Below, one piece after another: positions 7,330 through 19,746 of a stretch of 64,000 nt of DNA. A program made the position numbers and the translations under genes. The DNA comes from Sulfuriferula nivalis (lineage in GTDB: Bacteria > Pseudomonadota > Gammaproteobacteria > Burkholderiales > Sulfuriferulaceae): NCBI RefSeq assembly GCF_009937995.1, contig NZ_AP021881.1, positions 1,054,001 through 1,118,000 on the forward strand, written 5' to 3'. Under the pieces are notes generated by a model, which searched no databases, was not told the origin of the DNA, and was given only the letters and a program-made list of their open reading frames with translations. Position 1 is the stretch's first letter. Each line of letters begins with the position of its first letter.

Positions 7330-7370
7330 AAATTTCGCATGGTTGCCATATCAGGTTGAGCGTGTGCTCA
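7330..7370 (+). promoter_or_regulatory. Element-wide leader motif, copy 1
   Basis: AAATTTCGCAT then TTGCCATATCAGG, followed by hairpin TGAGC-GTGT-GCTCA (7357-7370). It starts 67 bp before the ATG at 7397. It is the most divergent of six copies in its 3' box but keeps the hairpin with a 4-nt loop. Confidence 0.65.
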
Positions 7371-7396
7371 CTCGACTTAAAAAAGGAACTTGCACC

Positions 7397-7636
7397 ATGA
7401 GCGTAAATGTACTTATCAAAAAACGTGACCAGCTAAATCAAAAAATCGCTGATTATCAAAAAATAGAAAAACGTAAAATCACTGTTGCAGATATTGCGCA
7501 TAAAGCAAAAATCCTAAACTTGCCCGACGAGTTTTTGAAAACTGCATTTGAACAGATTGCGTTATCGTATCAAAACGGAGTTAGCACAGAATCGCAAAAC
7601 GCTAATTCTCAATTTCCCCAAGGCGGTCAATCATGA
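7397..7636 (+). CDS. Small mobilization-associated protein (TraD-like small family?)
   Basis: 79 aa from ATG 7397, preceded by AAAAGGAAC. The N-terminal half (LIKKRDQLNQKIADYQKIEKRK) is a basic coiled coil and the second half a short helical domain (LPDEFLKTAFEQIA). Small proteins of this build often accompany relaxase genes (the short 'TraD'-type accessory proteins), but sequence identity with them is not evident. It overlaps the next gene by ATGA at 7633. A leader motif copy lies 67 bp upstream. Confidence 0.5.
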   Translation: MSVNVLIKKRDQLNQKIADYQKIEKRKITVADIAHKAKILNLPDEFLKTAFEQIALSYQNGVSTESQNANSQFPQGGQS

Positions 7637-8010
7637 TTAAAGTTGATCACGTAAATAACTTAAAACTGAATATTAAAATTCTAGCCTGGCTTATTTTTGT
7701 CGGATATTGCGCAGGGGTGTTTATTGGTTTTACTGTCGAAGCCTATAAGCATAATTTCAACTTTGACTTGTTCGCTGCATCGTTGTTTTTTTATTTGCCA
7801 GTGGATGGAAATTTGACATATTGGCTTGCGCAACATTTACCAGATTCAATACATGCCATGTTGCTAAATTTCAATCTTCACTTGTTGGCAGATTATCAAT
7901 TTGAGCACCAGCTCATATTCATCATTTACCCACTCGTTACTATCATCATTTTCACATTTACGTTTTTAACAGCATCAAGAAACAGATTAGCCAGCAACAT
8001 CAAAACCTAA
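7633..8010 (+). CDS. Hypothetical inner-membrane protein
   Basis: 125 aa, translationally coupled to the 79-aa protein (ATGA). Predicted segments: IKILAWLIFVGYCAGVFIGF (about 13-33), a central re-entrant region, and FIIYPLVTIIIFTFTFLTA (about 95-115). The topology is reminiscent of small membrane partners of coupling proteins, which are encoded just downstream, but no homology is recognised. Confidence 0.5.
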   Translation: MIKVDHVNNLKLNIKILAWLIFVGYCAGVFIGFTVEAYKHNFNFDLFAASLFFYLPVDGNLTYWLAQHLPDSIHAMLLNFNLHLLADYQFEHQLIFIIYPLVTIIIFTFTFLTASRNRLASNIKT

Positions 8011-8038
8011 ATCAGGTCGTTCCGTTTCACTACACTTT

Positions 8039-8215
8039 CCCGCCTCCCCAAAAATCACGGGGAAGCGGGCACACATTACGCATGTGTATGCAAACCATTC
8101 AAACCCTCGCCAGCACTGGCTTACAGCCTGTCCGCACCCATACCGTAAATCCGTCCGCGACACCTGCAAAAACAGCATCGTAAGCCAGATTTTATAACAG
8201 TCCGCTGGTGCGGAC
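8039..8215. other. Candidate oriT / structured non-coding region
   Basis: The 8011-8339 interval is non-coding and rich in inverted repeats: CCCGC..CCCC / GGGG..GCGGG (8039-8069), GCCAG-CA-CTGGC (about 8111-8122) and a perfect GTCCGC-TGGT-GCGGAC (8200-8215). It sits directly before the TrwA-like RHH gene, where MOB-F systems such as R388 place oriT. The nic sequence itself cannot be assigned by eye. Confidence 0.4.
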
Positions 8216-8339
8216 AATAAACAATTTATGCGGCGTATATTTCGCCGTTTGTGTGCCGTTTCAACCGCGCCGTACAGAGTGCAAAAACCACCGAAGCCAA
8301 CTTGCGCGTATTGCCGTTTTTGCATTGCAAGCCGTGTGC

Positions 8340-8379
8340 AAATTTCGCATCCCTGCCATATAGGGTAGCGATATTGCTA
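8340..8379 (+). promoter_or_regulatory. Element-wide leader motif, copy 2
   Basis: AAATTTCGCAT-CCC-TGCCATATAGGGT followed by hairpin TAGCG-ATAT-TGCTA (8366-8379, one G-T pair). Starts 59 bp before the ATG at 8399 of the RHH gene. Confidence 0.75.
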
Positions 8380-8398
8380 AAAAATGAGGTATTAAAAA

Positions 8399-8734
8399 AT
8401 GAGTGAAAGACTTTCCATCAGGTTGCAAAAAGACGAACTCGATCAAATTAAAAACCTGGCAAATTCGAGCGGTTTGCCATTAAGCACTTATACAAAAATG
8501 ATGCTAATTTCATCATTACAAAATCTAAAAAACGATGAAAACTTTGCTATGCAAATGCTAATAAATCGTGAGCTTTTCAGATTGGCGGCAACGAGTACCC
8601 ACGTTCTTTACCAACTACTTCCAGCAGATAAGCGAGATGAGATATTAGAAAAAGCCAAGCAACGCGCTTTCACACAAACTGCAAAATTCTTCGACGGCGA
8701 CATCGAAGAAAACGAACAACTAATGAACGAGTAA
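8399..8734 (+). CDS. TrwA/TraM-like ribbon-helix-helix protein
   Basis: 111 aa. The N-terminus MSERLSIRLQKDELDQIKNLANSSGLPLSTYTKMML is a classic ribbon-helix-helix (beta strand RLSIRLQ then two helices), as in TrwA, MobC and plant/phage CopG-like proteins. It sits between the structured region at 8011-8339 and the coupling-protein gene (24-nt gap), the trwA-trwB order of R388. Expected role: bind oriT, repress its own promoter and stimulate relaxase/coupling protein activity. The C-terminal half is helical and charged. Confidence 0.7.
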   Translation: MSERLSIRLQKDELDQIKNLANSSGLPLSTYTKMMLISSLQNLKNDENFAMQMLINRELFRLAATSTHVLYQLLPADKRDEILEKAKQRAFTQTAKFFDGDIEENEQLMNE

Positions 8735-8757
8735 TTTCAAAAAACAGGAGAAACAAA

Positions 8758-10452
8758 ATGTACGATTCTATCTATGCCATCATTTTCATAATCGCGGTTT
8801 TGTCATTAATCGCTGCGCGGATTTATATCTATTCTGGCAATGATGCTAAATTCAAATTGTTAATTATCCCGACGGTTGCAAGTGTGGTTTTGAGTATCAA
8901 CCCAGCAAACCATGATGCGTTTTTAAGTAGTTTGCTCAGTTACTTCGCAGGCGTGTTTGTCGTAATGAGCATATGGGAATTTGCAGCAAAGGAACATATT
9001 GCGAATTGGTTTAATGCCATAGACGACGATCCAAACCATGTGCGGGGTTCGTCAGTTGCCAGCCACGGCAAAGTGATCAAGCAAATGCGTAAAGCGGGTG
9101 TTACGGCTGATTTAAGCCTCGCTGGTTTGCCCGTGCCTAATAAACTTGAACCCTATCACTTTCTGTTTGCAGGTGCGACGGGCACGGGTAAATCGGTGGC
9201 GTTCATCGAAATGATGGACAAGATAATCAAGCGGGCAAACCCAGAAGAAAAGGTAATCGTAGTTGATGCGGGTGGTGGTTTCTATAGCCGATATGCGAAC
9301 AACCTACCCACCCCGCCTGTATTGTTCAATGTGTTTGATAAGCGAAGCGTGGACTGGTCACCGTTTGCAGAAATGCGTTACCCATGGGATGCGGATAGTT
9401 TAGCTACATCAATAATACCCAGCATGGAGGGCGAAGCAGGGCAATTTAACGGTTTTGCGCAAACATTTCTATCAGTCATATTGCTCAGACTATTTGAATC
9501 AGGGCGGGCAACAAACGGCGATTTGTTTCATTATGTTTGCGTTGCTTCAGTCGAGGAATTGCGAGTTATCACCGCAGGCACGGCAGCCGCGCCACTCGTT
9601 GAAGAGGGTAATGAGCGTTTGTTTGGCAGTGTTAAATTTGTTGCATCCAATGCACTCAAACCGTTTTCCTATCTTAGCAAAAGTGCGGGGCGTGAAGCCT
9701 TTAGCTTTCGCCGCTATGCCGAAGGCGAGGGCAACCAGTGGGCTTTCATTACTTTTCAGGATGATCAACTTGCAGCGTTGAAGCCTATCGTTTCAACGAT
9801 TCTGGACGTTGTGAGTAAAGTTGTCTTATCGCAGAAACCCAGCCAAACCCGCCGCACCTGGCTGATCATAGACGAGTGCGCGAGCCTCAACAAAATAACG
9901 TCACTTGCGGATTTCCTCACCAAAGCCCGCAAATCAGGGGGTTGTGCAGTGATAGGCTTGCAGAACATCGACCAATTCCGCCAAAACTACGGACACCAAG
10001 GGGCTAACGTACTTCTATCCTGTCTATCGAGTTGGCTGATTCTGCGTGTAGGCGATGGTGATACCGCTGAGTATATGTCCAAAACCTTAGGTGATCAGGA
10101 AGTATGGCGCACGTCCACAGGCAAAAACCACGCCACAGGCTTAGAGTTCGAGGACAAGACTAGCGAGAACACCAGCATCCAACGCCAGCGCACCGTTTTG
10201 GCGAGCGAGATTCAGCATTTAACCGAACGCGAGGGTTACCTAATGATTGGTGGTGCTTACGATATTGTAAAAATTTCGCTGGACATACCTGTTACATTGC
10301 CAAACCCCGCAGAGCCGATTGAGGCTATCGAGTACACGCCGCAAGCCCATAAGCAAGAGGAAGAAGCCATACCTGCGCCAGCTACGATCAGCAATGCGTA
10401 TTTGCCGTTTGACCTGCCCGAAGATGAGGAAGATCACGAGCCAGAAGTCTAA
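8758..10452 (+). CDS. Type IV coupling protein, TrwB/TraD family
   Basis: 564 aa. Two N-terminal membrane helices (about 4-22 and 32-70) are followed by a RecA-like ATPase domain: Walker A GATGTGKSVAF (about 139-149), Walker B RTWLIIDECASL (about 361-372), and a VIGLQNIDQFRQNYG segment typical of TrwB/TraD. The last 60 residues are acidic and proline-rich, as in TraD tails. It links the relaxosome to a secretion channel and pumps DNA. An AGGAG site precedes the ATG at 8758. The channel genes are absent from this element. Confidence 0.9.
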   Translation: MYDSIYAIIFIIAVLSLIAARIYIYSGNDAKFKLLIIPTVASVVLSINPANHDAFLSSLLSYFAGVFVVMSIWEFAAKEHIANWFNAIDDDPNHVRGSSVASHGKVIKQMRKAGVTADLSLAGLPVPNKLEPYHFLFAGATGTGKSVAFIEMMDKIIKRANPEEKVIVVDAGGGFYSRYANNLPTPPVLFNVFDKRSVDWSPFAEMRYPWDADSLATSIIPSMEGEAGQFNGFAQTFLSVILLRLFESGRATNGDLFHYVCVASVEELRVITAGTAAAPLVEEGNERLFGSVKFVASNALKPFSYLSKSAGREAFSFRRYAEGEGNQWAFITFQDDQLAALKPIVSTILDVVSKVVLSQKPSQTRRTWLIIDECASLNKITSLADFLTKARKSGGCAVIGLQNIDQFRQNYGHQGANVLLSCLSSWLILRVGDGDTAEYMSKTLGDQEVWRTSTGKNHATGLEFEDKTSENTSIQRQRTVLASEIQHLTEREGYLMIGGAYDIVKISLDIPVTLPNPAEPIEAIEYTPQAHKQEEEAIPAPATISNAYLPFDLPEDEEDHEPEV

Positions 10453-10495
10453 CTGCATGTGAAACACCAATACTTCGGGAGTGAAACACCAATAG
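10453..10495. repeat. CACCAATA double repeat, copy A
   Basis: CTGCATGTGAAACACCAATA followed by TTCGGGAGTGAAACACCAAT. The same pair occurs at 12801-12843 and, in swapped order, at 12525-12568. Copies A and C lie just upstream of leader motifs 3 and 4. Probable protein-binding sites; ligand unknown. Confidence 0.6.
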
Positions 10496-10527
10496 GTGAT
10501 ACCTGCCGAAAATGGTGGGTATCTTCC

Positions 10528-10569
10528 AAATTTCGCCTCATCGCCATATAGGGTAAGGCGACTTGCCTT
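10528..10569 (+). promoter_or_regulatory. Element-wide leader motif, copy 3
   Basis: AAATTTCGCCTCA then TCGCCATATAGGGT, followed by hairpin AAGGC-GACTT-GCCTT (10555-10569). It begins 64 bp before the ATG at 10592 of a 31-aa membrane protein gene. Confidence 0.75.
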
Positions 10570-10591
10570 GCTCATCTAAAGGGGTTCTGAA

Positions 10592-10687
10592 ATGGAAAAC
10601 TACGACAATGGATTATTGAAAATGCTACCAACTATCGCTTTCTTCTTCGCAGTTTTCGCCTTCATTGGCTGGCTGTTTGGTTTGTGA
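10592..10687 (+). CDS. 31-aa single-pass membrane protein (MENYDNG family)
   Basis: Product begins MENYDNGLLKMLPTIAFFF and ends IGWLFGL: a short polar head followed by one membrane helix. A homologous 31-aa gene starting MENYDNGFISMLPT and ending MGWMFGL lies at 19587-19682 on the other strand. Both have AAGGGGTTC before the ATG and the same leader motif about 64 bp upstream. Conservation of length, ends and leader argues for real translated genes. Function unknown; candidates are type I toxin-like peptides or small membrane adaptors. Confidence 0.75.
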   Translation: MENYDNGLLKMLPTIAFFFAVFAFIGWLFGL

Positions 10688-10729
10688 GCCGCAGCATCAA
10701 AACTATTAATTTTTATTGAAAGGAAAACC

Positions 10730-10909
10730 ATGTTTAAAATTGAAATGCCAGATTACATGCCTGCCAAAGGCGAATGGGGCAAGAACAAGAAAACCGCATT
10801 ATTCTTTGTTAAGTTTAGCGCGCATCTTGCCTTGCGTCTGGGGCTGTTGATTTTTCTTACCCCGTTTTATATGCTCAAGTACTTTTTAATTCTTATCTCG
10901 AAAAGGTAA
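10730..10909 (+). CDS. 59-aa membrane protein
   Basis: Starts at ATG 10730 behind AAAGGAAAACC, a good ribosome-binding site. The product MFKIEMPDYMPAKGEWG... has a basic linker and one long hydrophobic segment (LALRLGLLIFLTPFYMLKYFLILI). It follows the 31-aa gene by 42 nt and precedes another tiny gene at 10914, so the three appear to form an operon. No family recognised. Confidence 0.6.
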   Translation: MFKIEMPDYMPAKGEWGKNKKTALFFVKFSAHLALRLGLLIFLTPFYMLKYFLILISKR

Positions 10910-10913
10910 GCAA

Positions 10914-11033
10914 ATGCGCTCAAACCGTCCGTTTTGCCAAAATTGCACCGATGTCATTTACGCTGGCATTGCCATAGCATTAATCGTTGGTGCGATCATC
11001 AAGATTGCTGATTTTTTCGGTTATTTCAAGTAG
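10914..11033 (+). CDS. 39-aa membrane protein
   Basis: Starts 4 nt after the previous stop, with GGTAAG of that gene's end acting as part of the ribosome-binding site. MRSNRPFCQNCTDVIYAGIA... has a CxxC pair in the short cytosolic-type head and one membrane helix (YAGIAIALIVGAIIKIADFF). Its 3' end overlaps the convergent antitoxin-like gene at 10980. Function unknown. Confidence 0.5.
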   Translation: MRSNRPFCQNCTDVIYAGIAIALIVGAIIKIADFFGYFK

Positions 11034-11228
11034 CGTAGGTGCGTCCGTGCTGGTAACGGCACGGACATTCTCGTTTTTTATCGCAGCTTTAGGGCGACCC
11101 CGCAGGCTGGTTAGCTTTAATTGCAAATATGCTGAAAGCATCGAAAATGGCTTGGCATCATGGTAATCACCCTGCACCAATTCACGGACTTCCCCGTTTT
11201 CGTCAGTCAATGGTTTGCGCTTTTTCAT
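10980..11228 (-). CDS. Orphan BrnA-like protein lacking the RHH domain
   Basis: 82 aa. The N-terminal half (MKKRKPLTDENGEVRELVQGDY...RGRPKA) matches the BrnA/DUF4415 antitoxin N-terminal pattern, including the RGRP linker also present in the complete BrnA at 19779-20072 (PRGRPRA). After the linker the ribbon-helix-helix seen in the complete BrnA (INIRLSHEVVEYFKS...GWQTR) is missing and replaced by an unrelated 30-aa tail. No toxin gene is adjacent. It may still neutralise a BrnT-like toxin, or be a decaying remnant. Confidence 0.55.
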   Translation of the reverse strand: MKKRKPLTDENGEVRELVQGDYHDAKPFSMLSAYLQLKLTSLRGRPKAAIKNENVRAVTSTDAPTLLEITEKISNLDDRTND

Positions 11229-11267
11229 GTCTGTTAGCTTTTCGTGCGTACGCCTTGCAAAAAGTGA

Positions 11268-11372
11268 TTACGCGCCTTCTTGAAAGCGCAGCCACAAAAC
11301 GAAACCCGCAAGCCCAACACCACCAAAACCAACAATTGCGAATGTTGCTACCAATCCATATTCAAGGCTCAT
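11268..11372 (-). CDS. 34-aa membrane protein (MSLE family, a)
   Basis: MSLEYGLVATFAIVGFGGVG... one membrane helix followed by WLRFQEGA. The start overlaps the stop of the upstream gene at 11369 (ATGA). It resembles that upstream protein (MSLETGL...LALWIRS), so the two look like a tandem duplication. Too short for standard gene callers. Function unknown. Confidence 0.5.
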   Translation of the reverse strand: MSLEYGLVATFAIVGFGGVGLAGFVLWLRFQEGA

Positions 11373-11515
11373 TTTTGTTCCCCAGATTGAACGTGACTAC
11401 CTGGCAAATCTGCCCCATCGTCGTGACTGCGAATCCAAAGTGCAAGCGCAACAATTGCAATCACGCCGATAATTGAAACCACATTAGCCATTATCAATCC
11501 AGTTTCTAAGCTCAT
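11369..11515 (-). CDS. 48-aa membrane protein (MSLE family, b)
   Basis: MSLETGLIMANVVSIIGVIA... one membrane helix, then a polar tail RSHDDGADLPGSHVQSGEQK. The downstream 34-aa gene is translationally coupled (ATGA overlap) and shares the MSLE-x-GL start and the LW[LI]R helix end. Function unknown. Confidence 0.55.
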   Translation of the reverse strand: MSLETGLIMANVVSIIGVIAIVALALWIRSHDDGADLPGSHVQSGEQK

Positions 11516-11551
11516 TTTTCAATCCATAAATACGGTAAAAATTCCGAATGA

Positions 11552-11692
11552 TTACAAATCGGGATGAGTGCCGCTTGATTTGTCGTTAGCGGGATGACGC
11601 AACTTATATGCCTTCGCCTCTGCTAGCGCTTTTAGTCCAAGAAGAAAACCAGCAAGCCCAATAACAAGCAGTATGATGTGATCTACAGCCAT
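11552..11692 (-). CDS. 46-aa membrane protein
   Basis: MAVDHIILLVIGLAGFLLGLKA... one membrane helix and a basic, then acidic tail. The 140-bp gap upstream (towards 11833) contains the 9-bp tandem repeat, so its spacing from the upstream gene may vary among isolates. Function unknown. Confidence 0.5.
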   Translation of the reverse strand: MAVDHIILLVIGLAGFLLGLKALAEAKAYKLRHPANDKSSGTHPDL

Positions 11693-11727
11693 AATCAGTC
11701 CTTCAATAGAGACAAAATGAGGTGAAC

Positions 11728-11823
11728 AATAAATACAATAAATACAATAAATACAATAAATACAATAAATACAATAAATACAATAAATACAATAAATACA
11801 ATAAATACAATAAATACAATTAC
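11728..11823. repeat. 9-bp tandem repeat, ten units
   Basis: The unit AATAAATAC is repeated ten times without error from 11728 to 11817, followed by a degenerate AATTAC. It lies between the minus-strand genes at 11552-11692 and 11833-11958. The plus-strand reading frame (Asn-Lys-Tyr repeats) is a by-product of the 9-bp period. Likely a hypermutable spacer. Confidence 0.95.
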
Positions 11824-11832
11824 GCCGCGGGC

Positions 11833-11958
11833 TTATTCCTTATCTTTGCCTTGTTTGTCTTTTTTGTGATCTTCAGCTCGATGTTTGTTTGCATAGATAG
11901 AAATCACAAGCAGGACAAGGGTTGCAGCACCAAACGCAATTAAGGATTCAATCGCCAT
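11833..11958 (-). CDS. 41-aa membrane protein
   Basis: MAIESLIAFGAATLVLLVIS... one membrane helix followed by a highly charged tail (HRAEDHKKDKQGKDKE). Preceded on its strand by an AGGAG-like GGAGATCGA. Part of a leftward series of tiny genes from 12417 to 10980. Function unknown. Confidence 0.5.
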   Translation of the reverse strand: MAIESLIAFGAATLVLLVISIYANKHRAEDHKKDKQGKDKE

Positions 11959-11991
11959 TTTCGATCTCCTGTTTATCGGCGTGCCTATTGT

Positions 11992-12126
11992 TTAGTTAGC
12001 CTTCTTCACTAATATTGCGTCTATAGACCTGCCAAGAAACTTCCAAAGCATTATTGCTGGCATGAAAAAGTCGCGTGGCGCTTCTTGAGCGCCTTTAATG
12101 AAGCCGTCTAAAAAGCTTTTCATCAT
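11992..12126 (-). CDS. 44-aa protein, amphipathic/membrane
   Basis: MMKSFLDGFIKGAQEAPRDFFMPAIMLWKFLG... Its ATG overlaps the stop of the upstream 41-aa gene at 12123-12125, indicating coupling. Both proteins share an 'F-x-x-G-F' head and an 'FxxP' block, possibly an old duplication. Function unknown. Confidence 0.5.
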   Translation of the reverse strand: MMKSFLDGFIKGAQEAPRDFFMPAIMLWKFLGRSIDAILVKKAN

Positions 12127-12248
12127 GATTGTTGCCTATGTGCTTTCCACACAGCAGAAACAGCACGCGCAAAACCTACGAATGGCGACCAGAAAACAAA
12201 CCAGCCTTCGTAAAACCCAATTAGAAACTCATCTTTAAGTGTTTTCAT
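12123..12248 (-). CDS. 41-aa protein, amphipathic/membrane
   Basis: MKTLKDEFLIGFYEGWFVFWSPFVGFARAV... aromatic-rich hydrophobic centre with a basic C-terminus. Overlaps both the upstream antitoxin-like gene (ends 12235) and the downstream gene (starts 12126), so the three are translationally linked. Function unknown. Confidence 0.5.
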   Translation of the reverse strand: MKTLKDEFLIGFYEGWFVFWSPFVGFARAVSAVWKAHRQQS

Positions 12249-12417
12249 CGGTAGATTCCTTGGTTTGTTGATGATCATTTTTCACAGGTACAGCCAAACA
12301 AGACTGGTCAAAATTGCGCAATGTTGTGCTGTCTATAGCACCAACTTCAAATAGAGCATTTGCTGATGTATAGATGGCTTTGAAAACGTCACTTTTGTAT
12401 TTGGGTTCGGTGGTCAT
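12235..12417 (-). CDS. HigA-like antitoxin N-domain without HTH
   Basis: 60 aa from ATG 12417 (GGAG 8 nt upstream; ATG 12423 is an alternative). The segment KSDVFKAIYTSANALFEVGAI...FDQSCLAVPV aligns with the first half of the complete antitoxin at 19214-19537 (KSSILQSVHETALDLQDLGFI...YDALCLDAVPV), but the protein ends where that antitoxin's helix-turn-helix begins. No toxin is adjacent; instead it heads a series of tiny membrane-protein genes. It could neutralise a related toxin without repressing DNA. Confidence 0.55.
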   Translation of the reverse strand: MTTEPKYKSDVFKAIYTSANALFEVGAIDSTTLRNFDQSCLAVPVKNDHQQTKESTDENT

Positions 12418-12524: not shown

Positions 12525-12568
12525 TTTCGGGAGTGATACCCCAATAGCTGCATGTGAAACCCCAATAG
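12525..12568. repeat. CACCAATA double repeat, copy B (swapped order)
   Basis: TTTCGGGAGTGATACCCCAA-TAG followed by CTGCATGTGAAACCCCAATA. Same two half-units as at 10453-10495 and 12801-12843 but in reverse order and with CCCC in place of ACAC. Confidence 0.55.
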
Positions 12569-12589
12569 TTTTTTGTTAGCGTATGGCAT

Positions 12590-12780
12590 GTCAATGGCGA
12601 AAGCAGAAGCCGCACGCGGAGCGCAACGTAGTGAGCACCGAACGGGTGAGCATTTCGGCGTAGCGCACCATTGACAGGACAGGAGCGGAATAAGCTCTGG
12701 TGAGGGTGTGGGGTTGTTGTTTAACCCCGCACCCTTGCCTATCGGCGAGATTGGGGTTTGGGGCAAAGCCCCAAGGTGTT
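12590..12780. repeat. Long inverted repeat, left arm
   Basis: About 190 bp that recur in reverse complement at 18551-18747 with roughly 90% identity by eye, including GGGTGCGGGGTTGTTGTTTAAC-type sequence, the 'cacccgttcggtgctcac' block and a TTGGGGC..GCCCCAA hairpin. The arms bracket the relaxase gene and the lipoprotein operon. No credible gene lies in the arms. Confidence 0.85.
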
Positions 12781-12800: not shown

Positions 12801-12843
12801 CTGCATGTGATAACCCAATAGTTCGGGAGTGAAACACCAATAG
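12801..12843. repeat. CACCAATA double repeat, copy C
   Basis: CTGCATGTGATAACCCAATA then TTCGGGAGTGAAACACCAAT, 12 bp before leader motif 4 of the relaxase gene. Same arrangement as copy A before leader motif 3. Confidence 0.6.
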
Positions 12844-12854
12844 TTATACCCGCC

Positions 12855-12901
12855 AAATTTCGCATGGCTTCCATAGGTAATAAGCAAAATCGCTTATTAC
12901 C
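12855..12901 (+). promoter_or_regulatory. Element-wide leader motif, copy 4
   Basis: AAATTTCGCATGG then TTCCATAGG, followed by the strongest hairpin of the set: GGTAATAAGC-AAAATC-GCTTATTACC (12876-12901, 10-bp perfect stem). It begins 63 bp before the relaxase ATG at 12918 and overlaps the otherwise possible upstream start at 12864. Confidence 0.7.
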
Positions 12902-12917: not shown

Positions 12918-15900
12918 ATGATCAGTTGCACATTCTTCCAGTCCGCCAAAGGGGCTGCGGGTTACTTAACAAAAGAACAAAACGGCACACAACCAGATAA
13001 AGCGCGAGGCGAATATTACGCCGACGACCAGGTTAGAAGTGAATGGGGCGGCGAAGGCGCAGCTATAGCGGGCTATGAGATTGGTGGTAGTGTTTCCGCC
13101 ACTGATCTGCATAAAGTTTTGTCTGGTCAATTTCGTGAGCCTGCAAACAACAACGCCGAGCGACAACTTGGCAGAATCGACGCAGAAGGCAAGATAGACC
13201 ACCGCGCAGGCATGGACTTCACCTTTAGCGCACCTAAATCCATCTCAATAGCAGCGGAAATCTACGACAACGTAGGTATTCGCGCTGCGCATGAAGCCGC
13301 AGTTCAGGCAGCCTTGAATTACTTGGAATCCAACTGCGCATGGACGCGGGTAAACGGGCAGAAAGTTCAAACGCAAAATCTTGTTTATGCCAAGTTTGAG
13401 CACTCATTGACTCGCGAGCTTGACCCTAGCACACATACCCATGTTGCCATTGCCAACGTAACCTATCACGCTGGCAAGGCGTACAGTTTGTCAAATGAGG
13501 CATTATTGACACATCGCATGACGGCAGACCGAATTTATAAGAATGAATTGGCAGCTGAGCTACAAATGCGAGGTTATCAAATTGAATTTGATAAGTTCGG
13601 CATTCCAGAGCTGGCAGGCATCACAAATGAACAAAGGGCAGAATTCAGCGAACGCTCAAAACAAATAGATGCGTATCTAGTATCCAAGGGCATTAATCCT
13701 GATACAGCCACCAGTAAACAGCGAGAAATTGCTTGCTTAGAAACACGTGCTGGTAAAAATGCACCTGAATCATCAGCACAACAACGCGCACAATGGTTGG
13801 AACGCGCCGAGCGCATCAACATGAAAGAACCGTTACCGCACCACAGCCGCGAGCAGGCATACAGCGTAAACGCAGGCAAAGAAGCCCTTTCTGCGTCAAT
13901 TTCGCACCTGTCAGAACGCGAAGCCGCATTTAATCTAAAGGAAGTCTATACCTACGCCGCCAAATTCAGCGAAGGACGGGCAACCTATAGCCAGATACGT
14001 GCAGCCGTTATCAAGGCAGAACGCAGCGGCGAGCTTATTCGTCGCGCTGATGGTGAGTTCACCACGCTTGCAGCAGCAGCCTCAGAACAAGCATTAGCTG
14101 CACGCCTTGAGGCTGGCAAAGGCGCACATCAGGCTGTTATGACAGCGCAGGCCTTCGATAAAGCATTAGCCAGTTTTGAACGCAGCAAAGGCTTTAACCT
14201 CACCGAAGAACAACGTGCAGCCGCCAGCATGATCTTGACTGGCAAGGATGTACATGCAGGCGTACAAGGTTTGGCAGGCACAGGTAAGACCACTATGCTG
14301 GAATTTGTACGCGAGGCAGCAGAAAGCCAAGGTTGGACGGTGACAGGGTTTTCCAATGGCGCGAATCAGGCGCAGAAGATGGAACAGGAAAGTGGCATTA
14401 AAACCACCACGACAGCCAGCCACTTACTATCAGAAGCCAAGGTGCAGCGTGACCAGCAACGCGCCGCAGAAGCACTTGCTACCTTTGAGGCAGGCATCAA
14501 GCCTAATCTGACTAAGCTGGAAGAACAGGTGGCCCAAGGCGAGGCTGTCAAAGAGTATGACAGTGCGGGCAATGCCTACATCATCGACAAGGCGGGCAAC
14601 ACCCATGCGCTTGCCTTGCACGCAGCCAGCAACAGCACTTCCAGTCGCAACATCAACCATCTAGGTTTAACCCAAAGCAAATACCTGATAGTTAAAAGCA
14701 AAGGGCTGGCGGGCATTGTGGGAATGACTACCGTGGTCAAAACAGGCGGCAGCTTGAAGAATGAAGCCGCAGGCGCAATCAAGGACGGCATCAAGTCGCA
14801 CAATTTCGCCGCACGACTAGCAAAAAGCGTAATCAGCAGAGCCGAAGGCTGGAAACAGGCAGGCATGTTGGAGAGCACAGCCACACGTATCAAAATTGCG
14901 CTGGAAAATCGTGCGCAACATAGCCAAGCCCTTGCCGACCTCAAACAACAGGCAGAAATCAAACCTATGCGCGAATTGCGCATCATGGATGAAGCGTCTA
15001 TGAGTGGACAGAAAGAATTTGCCAACGTAGCACAGACCGCAGACAACGCAGGCGCAAAGCAAATCTATCTGGGTGACAAGTTGCAGCACCAATCCGTTGA
15101 AGCAGGCACAGCTTTTGAACAAGCGCAGAAGCACATGCCCGTATCCAACCTGGAGCAAATCAGCCGCCAAAAAACCGAACATGCCAAGGCTACGGTAAAG
15201 CACATCCTGGACAACAAACACGCAGAGGCAATCCAGAGTTTGCCCGCACATGAAATCAGAAGAACGCAAATCAGGGCAAGAATCGAGTATCAGAACAAAC
15301 ACCGCATATCGGACACGATAGCCAAAGCCGAGCGCATCAACAACGCCAGAATAGCCAAAACAAAAACAACTGAAAAGCTAACCGACCGTGAAAAATCCAC
15401 CTTGCGCAGCTATAAGGACGATCTAAAGCAAGCTGCACAAAAAGACAATGCGGCTGTTATCAAAGACCTTGCCAAGGATTACGCTGCGCTATCACCCAAT
15501 GAACGCGCTGAAACCATCGTGATAACTGCGACCAATGCAGACCGCGCCAGCATTAATAATGAAATCCGTGACAACCTGAAAGCCGCAGGTGAAATCAAGG
15601 ACAGCCGCGCCGTGCTTGTCCTTGAAAGCAAAAGCATGACCACCGCAGAAGCCAACCGCGCCGCCAATTATGCGCCAGGTGATATTGTGAAGTTCAGCAA
15701 GGATTACAAAAATCTAGGCATGAAGCGAGGCGGCACGCTCACTGTATTAAAAACCGACCACCGCGCGAACACAGTGACCGCCATGACTACCGACGGCAGG
15801 ACGATAACCTATCAGCCAGACCGACAGAAAGCGCAGGCATACACGCCTAAAACGCGCGAGTTCGGGGTGGGTGACAAAATTAAATTTATGGAAAACAACC

Positions 15901-16334
15901 GTGATTTTGATTTGAAGAACGGGCAAGGCGCAACCATCGAGCGCATAAACGGCGCAAGCCTTACCGTCAGTCTGGATAACGGCAGGACTAAAACCATTGA
16001 CATGCAAAAATATCAACATCTTGATCATGGCTACGCCTCGACCAGCCAAGCCGCGCAAGGGCAGACGGTCAACAGAACGTGGATACACCACAACACGGAG
16101 GCAGGCAAGCACGGACAGCGTGAAGCATATGTGAATGCGACCCGCGCACGGATGAGCACAAAGCTATATACCCAAGACAAAGCCAAGGCAGCAGAACAAG
16201 CGGGTGTACGCATAGATAAAACTTTCGCGATGCCAGACGTTGGCATTTCGCCAGCTAAACCCCAGCCTACGGCAGAAATGAAACAGGCAGAACCTGACAA
16301 AACGAGAAGCCGAGATAACGATTACGGCTTGTAA
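12918..16334 (+). CDS. MOB-F conjugative relaxase/helicase (TrwC/TraI-like)
   Basis: 1138 aa from ATG 12918 (MISCTFFQSAKGAAGYLTKE); the in-frame ATG at 12864 lies inside the leader motif. N-terminal TrwC relaxase domain: catalytic Tyr about 16, HTHV metal-binding histidines about 171-173, and the DFTFSAPKSISI motif. A RecD-like helicase follows with Walker A GLAGTGKTTM (about 448-457) and IMDEASM (about 690). The C-terminus has YASTSQAAQGQTVNRTWIH, the UvrD-C-like motif of TraI. It nicks oriT, stays covalently bound to the transferred strand and unwinds it. A terminator follows at 16342. Confidence 0.93.
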   Translation: MISCTFFQSAKGAAGYLTKEQNGTQPDKARGEYYADDQVRSEWGGEGAAIAGYEIGGSVSATDLHKVLSGQFREPANNNAERQLGRIDAEGKIDHRAGMDFTFSAPKSISIAAEIYDNVGIRAAHEAAVQAALNYLESNCAWTRVNGQKVQTQNLVYAKFEHSLTRELDPSTHTHVAIANVTYHAGKAYSLSNEALLTHRMTADRIYKNELAAELQMRGYQIEFDKFGIPELAGITNEQRAEFSERSKQIDAYLVSKGINPDTATSKQREIACLETRAGKNAPESSAQQRAQWLERAERINMKEPLPHHSREQAYSVNAGKEALSASISHLSEREAAFNLKEVYTYAAKFSEGRATYSQIRAAVIKAERSGELIRRADGEFTTLAAAASEQALAARLEAGKGAHQAVMTAQAFDKALASFERSKGFNLTEEQRAAASMILTGKDVHAGVQGLAGTGKTTMLEFVREAAESQGWTVTGFSNGANQAQKMEQESGIKTTTTASHLLSEAKVQRDQQRAAEALATFEAGIKPNLTKLEEQVAQGEAVKEYDSAGNAYIIDKAGNTHALALHAASNSTSSRNINHLGLTQSKYLIVKSKGLAGIVGMTTVVKTGGSLKNEAAGAIKDGIKSHNFAARLAKSVISRAEGWKQAGMLESTATRIKIALENRAQHSQALADLKQQAEIKPMRELRIMDEASMSGQKEFANVAQTADNAGAKQIYLGDKLQHQSVEAGTAFEQAQKHMPVSNLEQISRQKTEHAKATVKHILDNKHAEAIQSLPAHEIRRTQIRARIEYQNKHRISDTIAKAERINNARIAKTKTTEKLTDREKSTLRSYKDDLKQAAQKDNAAVIKDLAKDYAALSPNERAETIVITATNADRASINNEIRDNLKAAGEIKDSRAVLVLESKSMTTAEANRAANYAPGDIVKFSKDYKNLGMKRGGTLTVLKTDHRANTVTAMTTDGRTITYQPDRQKAQAYTPKTREFGVGDKIKFMENNRDFDLKNGQGATIERINGASLTVSLDNGRTKTIDMQKYQHLDHGYASTSQAAQGQTVNRTWIHHNTEAGKHGQREAYVNATRARMSTKLYTQDKAKAAEQAGVRIDKTFAMPDVGISPAKPQPTAEMKQAEPDKTRSRDNDYGL

Positions 16335-16341
16335 CCCACTT

Positions 16342-16366
16342 ACCCGCCTCATCAGCGGGTTTTTTT
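16342..16366 (+). terminator. Rho-independent terminator after relaxase
   Basis: Stem ACCCGC/GCGGGT with loop CTCATCA followed by seven Ts, 8 nt after the relaxase stop. Confidence 0.85.
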
Positions 16367-16420
16367 CGCATGGGTGATGCAGATTATCAACCCGCAAAAA
16401 ATAACCGCTCAAATCGCCGC

Positions 16421-16467
16421 AAATTTCGCACCCCTGCCATATAGGGTGTAAGGCAAATCTGCTTTGC
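16421..16467 (+). promoter_or_regulatory. Element-wide leader motif, copy 5
   Basis: AAATTTCGCACCCC-TGCCATATAGGGTG followed by hairpin GCAAA-TCTGC-TTTGC (16453-16467). It begins 78 bp before the ATG at 16499 of the four-gene lipoprotein operon. Confidence 0.75.
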
Positions 16468-16498
16468 AATTTAACTTAATCTTAAAAGGACTTTTATC

Positions 16499-16954
16499 AT
16501 GGCTTTTCCATTCTTGATGTTGTTTTTCCCATTGGCTTTGGCAGCAAAGGTTGCACAAGAACCCCCTACAGCGGCAGACCTTGGCGGCGCAGCTAACGCA
16601 CCAGTCGTATGCCAGACCACCACGCTCAAAAAAGAAGACTTCACCACCTTGCGTAACTTTGCCGAGGCGCAGGGTGTTGATGTGCCTGATGTGAAAATTC
16701 CTGCCACAGCTTGGCTAACTCTAAGCATGTATTCGCCTATGCCAGGCTTGCTCTCGCTGCCAACGGTTGCCATTGACACGCTCAACCCGTTTGCATGGGC
16801 GACCCTGTTTCAAATCAAAGGTGACGGCGCAGGCTTGAAATGGACGGTCAATGACAAAGACGTTAAGCACAAGATCAGTTTCCGCGTGCTGGGTGATACC
16901 AACGTGGACGGTCAGCAGTTTGTGAACATCAACACATGCAAACTGGCGAACTAA
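16499..16954 (+). CDS. Hypothetical exported protein
   Basis: 151 aa with an N-terminal signal-like hydrophobic segment (AFPFLMLFFPLALAAKVAQE). The mature part has two cysteines (about 37 and 147) that could form a disulfide, and DxxxF-type beta-rich sequence. First gene of a four-gene operon (16499-18151); overlaps the next gene by 19 nt. No family recognised. Confidence 0.55.
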   Translation: MAFPFLMLFFPLALAAKVAQEPPTAADLGGAANAPVVCQTTTLKKEDFTTLRNFAEAQGVDVPDVKIPATAWLTLSMYSPMPGLLSLPTVAIDTLNPFAWATLFQIKGDGAGLKWTVNDKDVKHKISFRVLGDTNVDGQQFVNINTCKLAN

Positions 16955-17190
16955 CCCAACTACGCGCCTACACAGTCCGCCCGAAAGGGCGGGTTGTGTA
17001 TCAGTCAGACATCGAGGCTGAGAATCATGCAAGCGTTTATCTGATACATGCCAACGGCGAAGAAGAGCTGGTATTTGCAGGCTTCCAGCGCAAGGCTGAA
17101 TTAGTGGAACACGAAGCACGATTGGCACAGAAAGCAGCGGGTAACACCAAATCCCCTATTGTGTTTTTAATCTCAGGAGCAGAAAAATGA
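16936..17190 (+). CDS. Hypothetical 84-aa protein
   Basis: Starts inside the preceding gene (19-nt overlap) and overlaps the next gene's ATG by 4 nt (ATGA at 17187). Soluble product with a small beta-rich region (GRVVYQSDIEAENHASVYLIHANGEEEL) and a helical C-terminal half. No family recognised; the tight overlaps support it being real. Confidence 0.5.
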   Translation: MQTGELTQLRAYTVRPKGRVVYQSDIEAENHASVYLIHANGEEELVFAGFQRKAELVEHEARLAQKAAGNTKSPIVFLISGAEK

Positions 17191-17636
17191 GTAAAGAATT
17201 TGAAGCAATGACAGACACGCTAACCAATGCGGAGTTTATAACCGACCCATTGCCACCAACTCCCACAGCCAGCAGAAAACGCGCTTGGCTATGGGCTTTA
17301 ATGATATGCGGTAGTGCAGTAGCGGTATCCGCCTATTTCCATCATCTACATAATGCACCAGTAGCACCAGTACCAGCAGCAGCCCCCGCACAGCAAAAAT
17401 TCACCCTGTTGGCTGGCGATACAGTGGCAATTGTGCCTTTTGCTACTGAGGATGAAGGCTGGCGCGTTTTGCTAGTGCCAACACGCGGACAGATAGAAAC
17501 GATTTATTACGGTGACAGCGAACAAGCAACGCGCATTTATGCGCTTGCCGATGCAATGCAGCGTAAAGCCAATGATACGGGCAAAGCGCAAGTATTCACC
17601 GTTCCAAACGACATTAACCAACCATCAAAAAATTAA
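17187..17636 (+). CDS. Hypothetical single-pass membrane protein
   Basis: 149 aa: a 28-residue cytosolic head, one membrane helix (AWLWALMICGSAVAVSAYFHH, about 30-50), an Ala/Pro linker and a periplasmic domain (FTLLAGDTVAIVPF...YYGDSEQATRIYALADAM). Overall build resembles small bitopic envelope proteins. Coupled to the upstream gene by ATGA and followed 11 nt later by the lipoprotein gene. Confidence 0.5.
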   Translation: MSKEFEAMTDTLTNAEFITDPLPPTPTASRKRAWLWALMICGSAVAVSAYFHHLHNAPVAPVPAAAPAQQKFTLLAGDTVAIVPFATEDEGWRVLLVPTRGQIETIYYGDSEQATRIYALADAMQRKANDTGKAQVFTVPNDINQPSKN

Positions 17637-17647
17637 GGATAGATAAC

Positions 17648-18151
17648 ATGAAAACATACCCACTAAAAAAATCAATCGCGGTTTTTGCATTGTTGACCGC
17701 AACCGCACTAACCGCAGGCTGTGCAAGTACATATGGCACAAACGGCGTAGGCAGCGGTGATTACAACAGCCAGCAGGCACGGCAAAGTCAGGATGTGCAG
17801 CTTGGCACTGTGTTAAGCACTCGTGCCGTAAACATCAACACCACGACCAATACCAGCCAGACCGCAGGGGCAGGCATAGGTGCGCTCTTAGGCGGCTTGG
17901 CAGGTAATCAGGTAGGCAATGGCACAGGCAAGACGATAGCAACTGTCCTGGGTGCGTTAGGTGGTGGTGTGGCTGGTAATGCAGTAGAACACCAGATCAG
18001 TAATCAACGCGGCATTGAAATTACTGTGAAGCTGGACAACGGGCAGCTAAGAGCTATTAGCCAGGCTGTTGACGGTGAAACATTCCGTGTTGGCGATCAT
18101 GTGCAGGTGATCGGCGGAATGTGGGGTGGTGTGATGCGAGTAACTCACTAG
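17648..18151 (+). CDS. SlyB/PcP-type glycine-zipper outer-membrane lipoprotein
   Basis: 167 aa. Lipoprotein signal (LLTATALTAGCAST; Cys about 26), a tandem glycine-zipper membrane hairpin (GAGIGALLGGLAGNQVGNGTG...LGALGGGVAGNAVEHQ) and a short beta domain (IEITVKLDNGQLRAISQ...FRVGDHVQVIGG). This is the SlyB/PcP (17 kDa antigen-like) family that stabilises the outer membrane. It is the last gene of an IME operon and is followed by a hairpin at 18164-18182. Carriage by an IME, alongside a YajG-like lipoprotein, is unusual. Confidence 0.85.
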   Translation: MKTYPLKKSIAVFALLTATALTAGCASTYGTNGVGSGDYNSQQARQSQDVQLGTVLSTRAVNINTTTNTSQTAGAGIGALLGGLAGNQVGNGTGKTIATVLGALGGGVAGNAVEHQISNQRGIEITVKLDNGQLRAISQAVDGETFRVGDHVQVIGGMWGGVMRVTH

Positions 18152-18163
18152 CCATAGTCTATA

Positions 18164-18182
18164 GGGCAGCCTATGGCTGCCC
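18164..18182 (+). terminator. Hairpin after the lipoprotein operon
   Basis: Perfect 8-bp stem GGGCAGCC-TAT-GGCTGCCC, 12 nt after the stop. No T-tract follows, so it may stabilise the 3' end or need Rho rather than being an intrinsic terminator. Confidence 0.5.
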
Positions 18183-18224
18183 GTCATTACAAAAATGAAA
18201 ATGTAAAGAAGTTGCTGGCAACTG

Positions 18225-18436
18225 ATATATGATAAGTATCATATATTATATGAATAATATATTATTTGCTCTCGTTCACGCTGTTGCTAAACAGCACCAC
18301 CAACCAGCCAAACCCCATACAGGATAAGGATTTTAAGCAATCAGCCTGCCAAATATGGCGGGCTGTGCTGCTTATCATATATGAATAATATAATATATGA
18401 TAAGTTTCATATATTATATTATTCATATACTATTTG
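18225..18436. repeat. AT-rich palindromic direct repeats
   Basis: Two 44-bp AT-rich blocks (18225-18268 and 18393-18436) share ATATATGATAAG-T-TCATATATTATAT and end in TATTTG, 168 bp apart. The right block is preceded by a 12-bp inverted repeat CTTATCATATAT/ATATATGATAAG (18371-18382 and 18393-18404). The interval has no gene. Possible vegetative origin, iteron-like sites or a small non-autonomous element. Confidence 0.7.
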
Positions 18437-18550
18437 AGCCTGAATAAGTCATCATGGCGACGTACTGCATGAAGCCGCAGAACGTCACCACCAAGCATAA
18501 AGGCATGGTCAGCATATCGCATGAAGCCGCGAAATGCAGACCACCAACAC

Positions 18551-18747
18551 AACACCTTGGGGCGTTGCCCCAAACCCCAATATTCGCCATATAGGCAAGG
18601 GTGCGGGGTTAAACAACAACCCCACACCCTCACCAGAGCTTATGCCGTTACTGTCGCATCAATGGTGCGCGCTACGCGCCGAAATGCTCACCCGTTCGGT
18701 GCTCACTTCGTTGCGCTCCGCATGCGGCTTCTGCTTTCGCCATTGAC
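18551..18747. repeat. Long inverted repeat, right arm
   Basis: Reverse-complement counterpart of 12590-12780, from AACACCTTGGGGC to CGCCATTGAC. Reading frames through it (proline-rich PTPSPEL) occur in both arms but have no start signals. Recombination between arms would invert about 5.8 kb carrying the relaxase and its downstream operon. Confidence 0.85.
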
Positions 18748-18812
18748 CCGCCATTCACTCACAAACCAAACACCCAGCCTATCAGTGCGAAGCCTGGTAC
18801 GAGGTTTTATGC

Positions 18813-18840
18813 TTGACGCTATACCCCTTAGTGATACAAT
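18813..18840 (+). promoter_or_regulatory. Toxin promoter giving a near-leaderless mRNA
   Basis: TTGACG (18813-18818), a 16-bp spacer and TACAAT (18835-18840). The toxin ATG is at 18847, only 6 nt after the -10 box, so transcription should begin at or within a base or two of the start codon. No ribosome-binding site is present. Confidence 0.6.
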
Positions 18841-18846
18841 ACTGAT

Positions 18847-19224
18847 ATGAAACGTGTACTAAAAACTCAACACTTTAATCGCTGGATGCGCAAAACGGAA
18901 CTAACCGATGCGCTGTTGTGCGCTGCTGTCAACGAAATGAAACGCGGTTTGGTAGATGCGCATCTTGGTGGATGCGTAGTAAAGAAAAGAGTTGCTATGT
19001 CAGGTCGCGGCAAAAGCAGTGGTGCTAGAACGCTATTGGCAACCAATTTGAAAAACCGTTGGTTCTTTGTATATGGTTTTGAGAAGAATGTTCGCGCCAA
19101 TATTAGTGAAAATGAATTGGAAGCTTTGCAGGCTATAGCATCTGATTTACTGGCGTTGGACTTGATTCAGATTGATGCCGCAGTTAACCGAGGAACATTA
19201 TTGGAGATTTGTCATGAGCGCTAA
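18847..19224 (+). CDS. RelE/HigB-like toxin (PF06296-type)
   Basis: 125 aa: MKRVLKTQHFNRWMRKTELTD... with RGKSSGARTLLATNL and RWFFVYGFEKNVRANI, the pattern of the RelE-like HigB/YddM-type toxin family that cleaves or blocks mRNA at the ribosome. It precedes and overlaps its antitoxin by 11 nt (toxin-first order, typical of higBA). The promoter at 18813-18840 suggests a leaderless transcript. It probably stabilises the mobile element by post-segregational killing. Confidence 0.8.
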   Translation: MKRVLKTQHFNRWMRKTELTDALLCAAVNEMKRGLVDAHLGGCVVKKRVAMSGRGKSSGARTLLATNLKNRWFFVYGFEKNVRANISENELEALQAIASDLLALDLIQIDAAVNRGTLLEICHER

Positions 19225-19537
19225 ACAAAATGCAAAAAGCAGTATCCTGCAATCCGTGCATGAAACGGCTTTGGATTTGCAGGATTTAGGATTTATCGAC
19301 AAACACAAAATGCAGAAATATGATGCGCTGTGTTTGGATGCCGTCCCTGTTTACGATAGCCAGAAAATTAAGGGTTTACGTGAACGCTACCGTATTAGCC
19401 AGGCGGTATTAGCTGCCATGCTCAACACCAGCCTTTCTACTGTTCGCCAATGGGAAATTGGCGATAAACATCCTAGTGGCCCATCACTAAAACTGCTTAA
19501 TCTTCTAGATCGTAAGGGTATGGAAGTGCTAATCTGA
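19214..19537 (+). CDS. HigA-like XRE-family antitoxin
   Basis: 107 aa from ATG 19214 (MSAKQNAKSSILQSV); longer in-frame starts would lie inside the toxin gene. Residues about 1-50 form the toxin-binding part, and residues about 53-105 an XRE-type helix-turn-helix (LRERYRISQAVLAAMLNTSLSTVRQWEIG). It should neutralise the upstream toxin and repress the operon. A second, HTH-less relative of its N-terminal half is encoded at 12235-12417. Confidence 0.8.
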   Translation: MSAKQNAKSSILQSVHETALDLQDLGFIDKHKMQKYDALCLDAVPVYDSQKIKGLRERYRISQAVLAAMLNTSLSTVRQWEIGDKHPSGPSLKLLNLLDRKGMEVLI

Positions 19538-19586
19538 TTATTCGGATATTGTATGCCAATCAGATTAGCAACCAAATCCTATTCAC

Positions 19587-19682
19587 TCACAAACCAAACA
19601 TCCAGCCCATGAGCACAAACCCGCCGATGAATACAGCCAAGGTAGGCAGCATTGAGATAAAGCCGTTATCGTAGTTTTCCAT
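19587..19682 (-). CDS. 31-aa single-pass membrane protein (MENYDNG family)
   Basis: MENYDNGFISMLPTLAVFI...WMFGL, same length as the protein at 10592-10687 and identical in its first seven residues and in the ML-PT and FGL positions. AAGGGGTTC precedes the ATG and leader motif 6 lies 64 bp upstream, as for the paralogue. It is monocistronic here, lying between the HigBA-like and BrnTA-like pairs. Confidence 0.75.
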   Translation of the reverse strand: MENYDNGFISMLPTLAVFIGGFVLMGWMFGL

Positions 19683-19704
19683 TTTGAACCCCTTGTTTAG
19701 TGAA

Positions 19705-19746
19705 TAAGCAAAGTTGCTTACCCTATATGGCAGGGATGCGAAATTG
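19705..19746 (-). promoter_or_regulatory. Element-wide leader motif, copy 6
   Basis: On the minus strand CAATTTCGCATCCC-TGCCATATAGGGT, followed by hairpin TAAGCA-ACTT-TGCTTA. It begins 64 bp before the ATG of the 31-aa gene at 19682. Closest to copies 2, 3 and 5. Confidence 0.75.

What the first reader, a model, noticed from the sequence alone, without database searches (positions are those of the whole stretch)
7330..19746. A repeated leader with a covarying hairpin controls six units of the mobile element
Six sites (7330, 8340, 10528, 12855, 16421 and, inverted, 19746) carry AAATTTCGCA-N4-TGCCATATAGGGT, each beginning 59-78 bp (mostly 63-67) before an ATG. After the box comes a hairpin whose stem differs each time yet stays paired: TGAGC/GCTCA, TAGCG/TGCTA, AAGGC/GCCTT, GGTAATAAGC/GCTTATTACC, GCAAA/TTTGC, TAAGCA/TGCTTA. 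Conserved promoter-like box plus structure conserved by compensatory change points to a common regulator or a structured 5' leader. It precedes the relaxase, RHH/coupling protein, lipoprotein operon and both 31-aa peptides. I know of no described counterpart.
Basis: seen in the sequence. Interest (0 to 1): 0.85.

Follow-up and report, generated by a model that had tools for sequence, protein, structure and literature searches.

The report
Repeated start-site hairpins in mobile elements
A bacterial mobile element puts the same short DNA signal, followed by a small hairpin whose letters differ from place to place but still pair, in front of its transfer genes, and a distant element does the same with an unrelated signal, which suggests a shared but undescribed way of switching on such genes.

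Summary
Six boxes lie 58-77 nt before start codons in a tRNA-Ser-integrated MOBF-type mobilizable element (about 563-21618); the core has no other exact copy in the 3.44-Mb genome. Two same-genus genomes carry the element with six boxes each. Over ten distinct leaders the mean hairpin exceeds all shuffles (0 of 2000) and all swaps of 3' halves (0 of 20000). A distant MOBF element (G229) has an unrelated 26-bp box with the same layout: ten of 12 leaders have a hairpin starting 0-4 nt after a TATA-like tail, with nine different stems. So pairing and place, not letters, are kept. A third element (G073) shares the box core AAATTTC-N10-(C/A)ATA but has irregular hairpins. Best reading: the box is the recognition site of an element-private regulon, and the hairpin forms at or near the mRNA 5' end. 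The regulator, the RNA start and the hairpin's effect are inferred, not shown. Multi-copy boxes on mobile elements are a known kind; a covarying hairpin coupled to them at the start site is the new part.

The parts
7331..7356 (+). box A (AATTTCGCATGGTTGCCATATCAGGT)
7357..7370 (+). hairpin TGAGC-gtgt-GCTCA
7397..7636 (+). 79-aa protein, first 18 residues identical in three elements; next gene 7633-8010 is a 125-aa putative membrane protein (by eye)
8341..8366 (+). box B
8366..8379 (+). hairpin TAGCG-atat-TGCTA (one G-T pair)
8399..8734 (+). NikA-like ribbon-helix-helix protein, slightly below the Pfam cut-off
8758..10452 (+). TrwB-type coupling protein
10529..10554 (+). box C
10551..10573 (+). 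hairpin GGGTAAGGC-gactt-GCCTTGCTC (core AAGGC/GCCTT)
10592..10687 (+). 31-aa peptide MENYDNG...; followed by 59-aa (10730-10909) and 39-aa (10914-11033) ORFs conserved in both relatives
12856..12881 (+). box D, right half altered (CATAGGTAAT)
12876..12901 (+). hairpin GGTAATAAGC-aaaatc-GCTTATTACC
12918..16334 (+). MOBF (TrwC) relaxase; likely start ATG at 12918 (by eye), because the tool's start at 12864 lies inside the box
16422..16447 (+). box E
16447..16468 (+). hairpin TGTAAGGCA-aatc-TGCTTTGCA with two internal G-T pairs
16499..18151 (+). unit of four ORFs (151, 84, 149 aa and a 167-aa glycine-zipper protein, putative lipoprotein)
19720..19745 (-). box C2, inverted
19705..19720 (-). hairpin TAAGCA-actt-TGCTTA
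19587..19682 (-). second 31-aa peptide, 61% identical to the first

Best explanation
An element-private regulon. Each transfer unit has its own copy of a two-part recognition box (AAATTTCGCA-N7-CATATAGGGT) that a regulator or initiating complex supplied by the element or its helper binds to start transcription there. The RNA then begins at or just after the TATA-like tail, so that a stem-loop forms at or near the mRNA 5' end. What is selected in the stem is pairing and distance from the box, not sequence; the likeliest role is that of a 5' stem-loop that protects the message and keeps the ribosome-binding site free. Shown: the box, its restriction to the element, the covarying hairpin, and the same layout with an unrelated box elsewhere. 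Inferred: that the box is the promoter or activator site, that the hairpin acts as RNA, and what it does.
For: Exact copies of the box core occur only in the element in all three genomes (single-mismatch copies occur elsewhere at background rate). The 18 boxes lie 58-78 nt before a start codon. Between the three elements, leader groups A and B keep the box but have wholly different stems that pair (in one B leader, L030:17822, with a mismatch inside), group C differs at two pairs, group E by G-T pairs and an extended stem; group F varies only next to the loop; group D compares leaders at different genes. Mean stem score: 7.1 vs 3.62 in shuffles for 10 distinct window-family leaders and 6.25 vs 3.35 for 12 G229 leaders; 0 of 2000 shuffles and 0 of 20000 swaps each. 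In G229 the 5' start of the stem varies least (sd 1.41; centre 2.54; 3' end 4.05), as expected if the stem is placed from the RNA start. Internal stem mismatches found without favouring G-T: three G-T, no A-C, two others. A terminator-like site at 16342-16360 lies between the relaxase and box E, so a start would be needed between it and 16499; but the scan found as many such sites in shuffles (21 vs 20.1). The exact reverse complement of the left half occurs nowhere in the element except, shortened, in the inverted site, so no antisense RNA to it is evident.
Against: No transcript data. If TATAnn is read as a sigma-70 -10 (G229 even has CTGACA 16 bp upstream), the start would fall inside the hairpin and the full stem would not be transcribed; in the window family the invariant T26 fits a TAnnnT -10 with the same consequence. 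In the window family the stem start is no better anchored than the centre (sd 2.33 vs 2.29). One of the ten window-family leaders (L030:17822, score 3.0) and two of the 12 G229 leaders (L068:9285 and L100:975, score 3.0 and 3) have no good uninterrupted stem in the tested place; a thirteenth G229 box (L101:12071) was dropped as weak. In G073 the shared box core has only irregular hairpins. No regulator was identified; the ribbon-helix-helix protein is an unlikely box-binder because its N-terminal strand differs between elements with the same box.
Confidence: 0.5

Rival explanations
1. The inverted repeat works as DNA at the promoter: TATAnn or TAnnnT is an ordinary -10, the start lies in the loop, and the palindrome helps opening, escape or an extruded cruciform; no complete RNA hairpin is made.
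For: G229 has CTGACA-N16-TATAnn; T26 is invariant in 18 of 18 window-family leaders and fits TAnnnT. The hairpin then spans the expected start.
Against: In 11 G229 boxes the -10 lacks key bases: A at the second position in 7 of 11, T at the sixth in 0 of 11 (the two weakest of 13 boxes left out). The few internal mismatches are G-T rather than A-C (three to none). The G229 stem start is better anchored than its centre, though this is not so in the window family.
Confidence: 0.25
2. The box is part of the transcribed leader: RNA starts upstream, and box plus hairpin form one RNA target for an RNA-binding protein or for sequestering the ribosome-binding site.
For: Some leaders pair box bases with downstream bases in the folds (L031:11786 TATAGGGT/ACCCTATA) and the box with the RBS region (L030:14889, L031:5056).
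Against: Box-RBS pairing is only modestly better than when partners are permuted (36 of 5000 as good; N7 alone 223 of 5000; a control upstream segment 556 of 5000). No conserved promoter-like sequence lies upstream of the boxes, and one box starts 6 nt after the stop codon of the gene before it (L030:9426).
Confidence: 0.12
3. No function in the stem: leaders spread by duplication, and imperfect palindromes are perfected by template-switch mutation.
For: Eleven of 18 leaders share an AAGGC or AAGCA arm, and two of the G229 leaders have the same stem.
Against: Would not explain the same spacing from an unrelated box in G229, with nine different stems in ten leaders.
Confidence: 0.07
4. Single-strand promoters of the Frpo/ssi type: the hairpin folds in transferred ssDNA and gives early expression in the recipient.
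For: Conjugation-related element, hairpins beside promoter-like sequence upstream of genes.
Against: In Frpo the -35 and -10 lie within the folded structure (PMC11541004, passages); here most of the box lies outside the hairpin. Leaders occur on both strands (19745 is inverted), so not all can be on the transferred strand.
Confidence: 0.03

Closest known systems
AcaCD-responsive promoters of SGI1-like integrative mobilizable elements
   Same: One recognition sequence in front of several transfer and excision genes of a mobilizable island that needs a helper (PMC8409611, passages)
   Different: Box sequence differs from the AcaCD site quoted in those passages; no hairpin is mentioned there; AcaC/AcaD homologues were not sought here
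Start-associated (SAS) and extended start-associated (ESAS) sequences of Cluster K mycobacteriophages
   Same: Repeated sequences before the starts of a subset of genes, about half with imperfect inverted repeats and a variable spacer; function still to be verified (PMC3203893 and PMC12699233, passages)
   Different: The ESAS arms have a consensus; here the arms vary and pairing is kept. SAS lies at the translation start; this box is 58-78 nt upstream
5'-terminal stem-loops that stabilise E. coli mRNAs (ompA, papA)
   Same: Stem-loop at the mRNA 5' end (Emory 1992, Bricker 1999: titles seen in the reference list of PMC3997798; content recalled)
   Different: Not known to me as a repeated module tied to one box across a mobile element
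Frpo/ssi single-stranded promoters
   Same: Folded DNA at promoters on conjugative elements (PMC11541004, passages)
   Different: There the -35 and -10 lie within the folded structure and the genes on the T-strand

Membership tests
AcaCD-type regulon of an integrative mobilizable element | One motif upstream of several transfer-related units | tested here: met
AcaCD-type regulon of an integrative mobilizable element | AcaCD binding sequence | tested here: not met
   the box lacks the CCSCAAWW-like core quoted (compared by eye only)
AcaCD-type regulon of an integrative mobilizable element | Activation by a helper's activator | not testable with these tools
   no expression data
Integrative mobilizable element | Integrase and att repeats | tested here: met
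   Tyr integrase 20486-21496; 18-bp repeat 563-580 / 21601-21618
Integrative mobilizable element | Own relaxase, no own mating-pair apparatus | tested here: inconclusive
   TrwC relaxase met; CagE_TrbE_VirB (VirB4 type) not found in G000, G012, G013, one family only
SAS/ESAS | 13-bp GGGATAGGAGCCC at the translation start | tested here: not met
   the repeated sequence is another and lies 58-78 nt upstream
5'-terminal mRNA stem-loop | Paired 5' end of the RNA | not testable with these tools
   RNA 5' ends unknown
Frpo/ssi | -35/-10 inside the folded structure | tested here: not met
   left half of the box outside the hairpin in the 18 leaders; stems reach into GGGT in some and to the end of CATA in 12856. 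Only short hairpins after the box were tested
sigma-70 promoter | -35/-10 consensus | tested here: inconclusive
   boxes not reported by the scan, which finds no more sites than shuffles (22 vs 22.4); TAnnnT fits the window family; G229 has CTGACA-N16-TATAnn but poor -10 bases
Known Rfam leader | Match to an Rfam family | tested here: not met
   only a guanidine-I riboswitch and a tRNA in the window at gathering score

The most novel reading that the evidence does not exclude
A general, undescribed promoter architecture of MOBF mobilizable elements: an element-specific 22-26-bp box ending in a TATA-like tail, coupled at nearly fixed distance to a hairpin of free sequence at the transcription start, used by a dedicated initiation or regulatory system and evolved at least twice with unrelated boxes.
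Probability: 0.3. Interest if true: 0.85.

Novelty: new variant of a known kind. Interest (0 to 1): 0.62.

Why it matters
If true, these elements switch on their transfer genes together through a private signal whose hairpin is read by shape rather than by letters. That would give a recognisable signature of element-wide regulation, a way to look for the missing regulator or helper of such islands, and a natural set of many stems with one function for testing how a 5' hairpin controls bacterial messages.

Tried and rejected
Box-RBS pairing (riboswitch-like sequestration): strong in single folds but only modestly better than permuted partners. Phage-type single-subunit RNA polymerase (suggested by TATAGGG): PF00940 not found in G000, G012, G013 and G229, but the control genomes did not ring either, so this is weak; T7-type promoters were also judged unlikely because the conserved block lies further upstream (from recall). 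Ribbon-helix-helix protein as box-binder: its N-terminus differs between elements with the same box. The 79-aa protein and the 153-aa protein 1742-2203 as regulators: AlphaFold pLDDT 60 and 56, no fold search run; PDB sequence searches gave E-values of 0.04 or worse; a Pfam scan of the 79-aa protein was asked for, which failed. Exact box in other collections: one single hit in genome contigs (a Chamaesiphon MAG) and five single hits in viral contigs; none has a second site scoring above 13 with the box profile, so none was taken as a relative; those collections may leave out genomes very near the window's. P0002 in viral contigs: no relative. P0005: no plasmid match and only the own genome among the 369 class genomes searched, a sample in which the two relatives are not reported. 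G229 box: no hit in viral contigs with the exact pattern; four of the 149 other genomes had one 3-mismatch hit each, with no cluster around it. Three further weak matches to the G229 box (17 of 25: L100:6583, L101:9140, L101:12913) were not taken into any count. No covariance model was built and no tool-made pair count was run: loop lengths differ between stems, so the gapless alignment A5 splits the register; swap tests were used instead.
Full report
What was checked. The pattern AAATTTCGCA-N4-TGCCATATAGGGT gives five sites within three mismatches against a mean of 0.01 in shuffles. With the core AATTTCGC-N7-CCATA there are six zero-mismatch sites in the 3.44-Mb genome, all in the element. 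The sites begin 58-77 nt before a start codon. The relaxase start proposed by the ORF tool lies inside the box; ATG 12918 is the likely start (by eye).

The element. It lies between an 18-bp repeat in tRNA-Ser (563-580; tRNA) and its copy at 21601-21618, with a tyrosine integrase, a TrwC relaxase, a TrwB-type coupling protein and a NikA-like protein, and a replication-initiation O-like protein at 2205-3167 (PHROG match). VirB4-type PF03135 was not found in this genome or in the two relatives with the same element, so transfer probably needs a helper; one family is a limited test.

Relatives. In a search of 100 genomes including the own one, four had a match: the own genome, two same-genus genomes with clusters of the box, and G097 with one 2-mismatch hit and no cluster around it. 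The two elements (L030, L031) share relaxase (80-81%) and coupling protein (76-77%) with the window, and each has six boxes. In G012 and G013 exact copies of the core are likewise confined to the element, five in each, and the sixth box of each has one mismatch; other one-mismatch copies elsewhere in those genomes are background, above a reversed-pattern control of 5 in G012 (19 in all) and 9 in G013 (28 in all). The consensus of 18 leaders is CCA-AATTTCGCA-TC-N3-T-(C/A)-CATATAGGGT; positions 2-8, 17-20 and 26 are invariant.

The hairpin. Taken singly the window hairpins are of mixed strength. As a set, 18 leaders average 7.1 against 3.2-4.3 in eight control segments of the same leaders, although single control segments reach 8.5; exchanging 3' arms never reached the observed energy in 5000 permutations. 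Because leaders are related, the test was repeated with ten leaders of distinct stem: 7.1 against 3.62 in shuffles (0 of 2000) and 0 of 20000 swaps; for six of the ten no foreign 3' half pairs better than the own one. Between elements, groups A and B have wholly different stems that pair (with one internal mismatch in L030:17822, which scores only 3.0 in the anchored test), C differs at two pairs, E by G-T pairs and an extended stem, F only next to the loop (A-T to G-T), and D compares leaders at different genes.

A second, unrelated box with the same layout. G229, found by its coupling protein (32% identical), carries boxes CTGACAG-N6-GCGCGAA-N2-T(A/G)T(A/G). Thirteen sites were taken; three weaker matches were not. 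One weak site was dropped before the test; of the remaining 12, ten have a stem of score 5 or more, starting 0-4 nt after the TATA-like tail, with nine different stems (two leaders share GGGCGC/GCGCCC). Scores: 6.25 against 3.35, 0 of 2000 shuffles, 0 of 20000 swaps; for 10 of 12 no foreign 3' half is better than the own one. The start of the stem varies less than its centre or end (all).

A third element with a related box. G073 has 17 sites with at least 12 of the 15 bases of AAATTTC-N8-GCAATAAG. In 934 kb of loci held at that point the core AAATTTC-N10-(C/A)ATA occurs only in the window, L030, L031 and L109, five times each. A longer pattern counted over 399 genomes of the order hits 112 of them; G073 stands out by number (11, controls 0), and G013 (5), G012 (4) and G000 (3) by clustering in the element (one G013 hit lies elsewhere). 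Other genomes reach similar numbers, for example G056 (6, controls 5), G258 (5, controls 3), G343 (4, control 1), G032 and G079 (3 each, controls 0), at scattered places; the list of places was cut. Hairpins in G073 are irregular: the set scores 4.12 against 2.87 near the box (1 of 1000 shuffles, 52 of 5000 swaps) and 4.5 against 3.91 over a wider stretch (41 of 1000, 4 of 5000). So the box can occur without a clear hairpin.

How common. In the order, 27 of 399 genomes have a TrwC-type relaxase (28 loci). Stretches of up to 20 kb around all 28 were scanned for repeated leaders, with a program that needs at least three similar copies; box plus hairpin was found in G000, G012, G013 and G229, and the related box in G073. 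Other repeats reported by the scan were judged by eye to be coding, tandem or palindromic operator repeats.

Where RNA starts is the crux. A sigma-70 reading of the TATA-like tail puts the start inside the hairpin. Against it, the G229 tail lacks bases that sigma-70 needs (A in 7 of 11, T in 0 of 11), and a consensus scan reports none of the boxes, though it finds no more than shuffles anyway. For an RNA hairpin speak the G-T rather than A-C mismatches (three to none, two others) and, in G229 only, the anchoring of the stem start. These are mild. I hold the RNA reading at about 0.5 and the DNA reading at 0.25.

What is known. AcaCD-responsive promoters (PMC8409611, passages), SAS/ESAS (PMC3203893 and PMC12699233, passages), Frpo (PMC11541004, passages) and 5'-terminal stem-loops (titles in the reference list of PMC3997798) are the nearest. 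Searches for a described repeated leader with a hairpin on conjugative or mobilizable elements listed none that I recognised; only open-licence papers were searched, and the listings show titles and abstract starts for the top rows only. A self-encoded small RNA of SGI1 (PMC9299015, abstract) shows that RNA control exists on such islands, by another route.

Noticed in passing
window 12572-12780 and 18551-18765: A 215-bp inverted repeat (89.8% identical) flanks the relaxase-lipoprotein segment.
   Followed up: partly
window 11726-11820: Perfect 9-bp tandem array ACAATAAAT, 10.6 copies.
   Followed up: no
window 10453-10500, 12530-12570, 12803-12845: Repeats of the type GTGAAACACCAATAG before boxes C and D; possible oriT or iteron sequence (by eye).
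   Followed up: no
window 3079-5104: A tyrosine-recombinase-like ORF interrupted near 3825 and an IS91-like transposase ORF, an insertion in the element (by eye, no family search).
   Followed up: no
window 18847-19537: RelE-type toxin with HTH antitoxin.
   Followed up: no
window 50295-50414 (-): Guanidine-I riboswitch outside the element.
   Followed up: no
window 5656-6411 and L109:2698-4281: The 251-aa protein of the window is about 30% identical over 231 residues to a 527-aa protein in the G073 element; no Pfam match for either.
   Followed up: partly
L061 4297, 8013, 14123, 15421, 16090: Repeated palindrome GACTTTCGCGCGCGAAAGT on a small Alcaligenes MOBF plasmid, likely an operator.
   Followed up: no
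L067 and L085 (G012:C2, 39138 bases): A second contig in G012 with its own coupling protein (39% identical); a possible helper plasmid, but it has no box core within one mismatch.
   Followed up: partly
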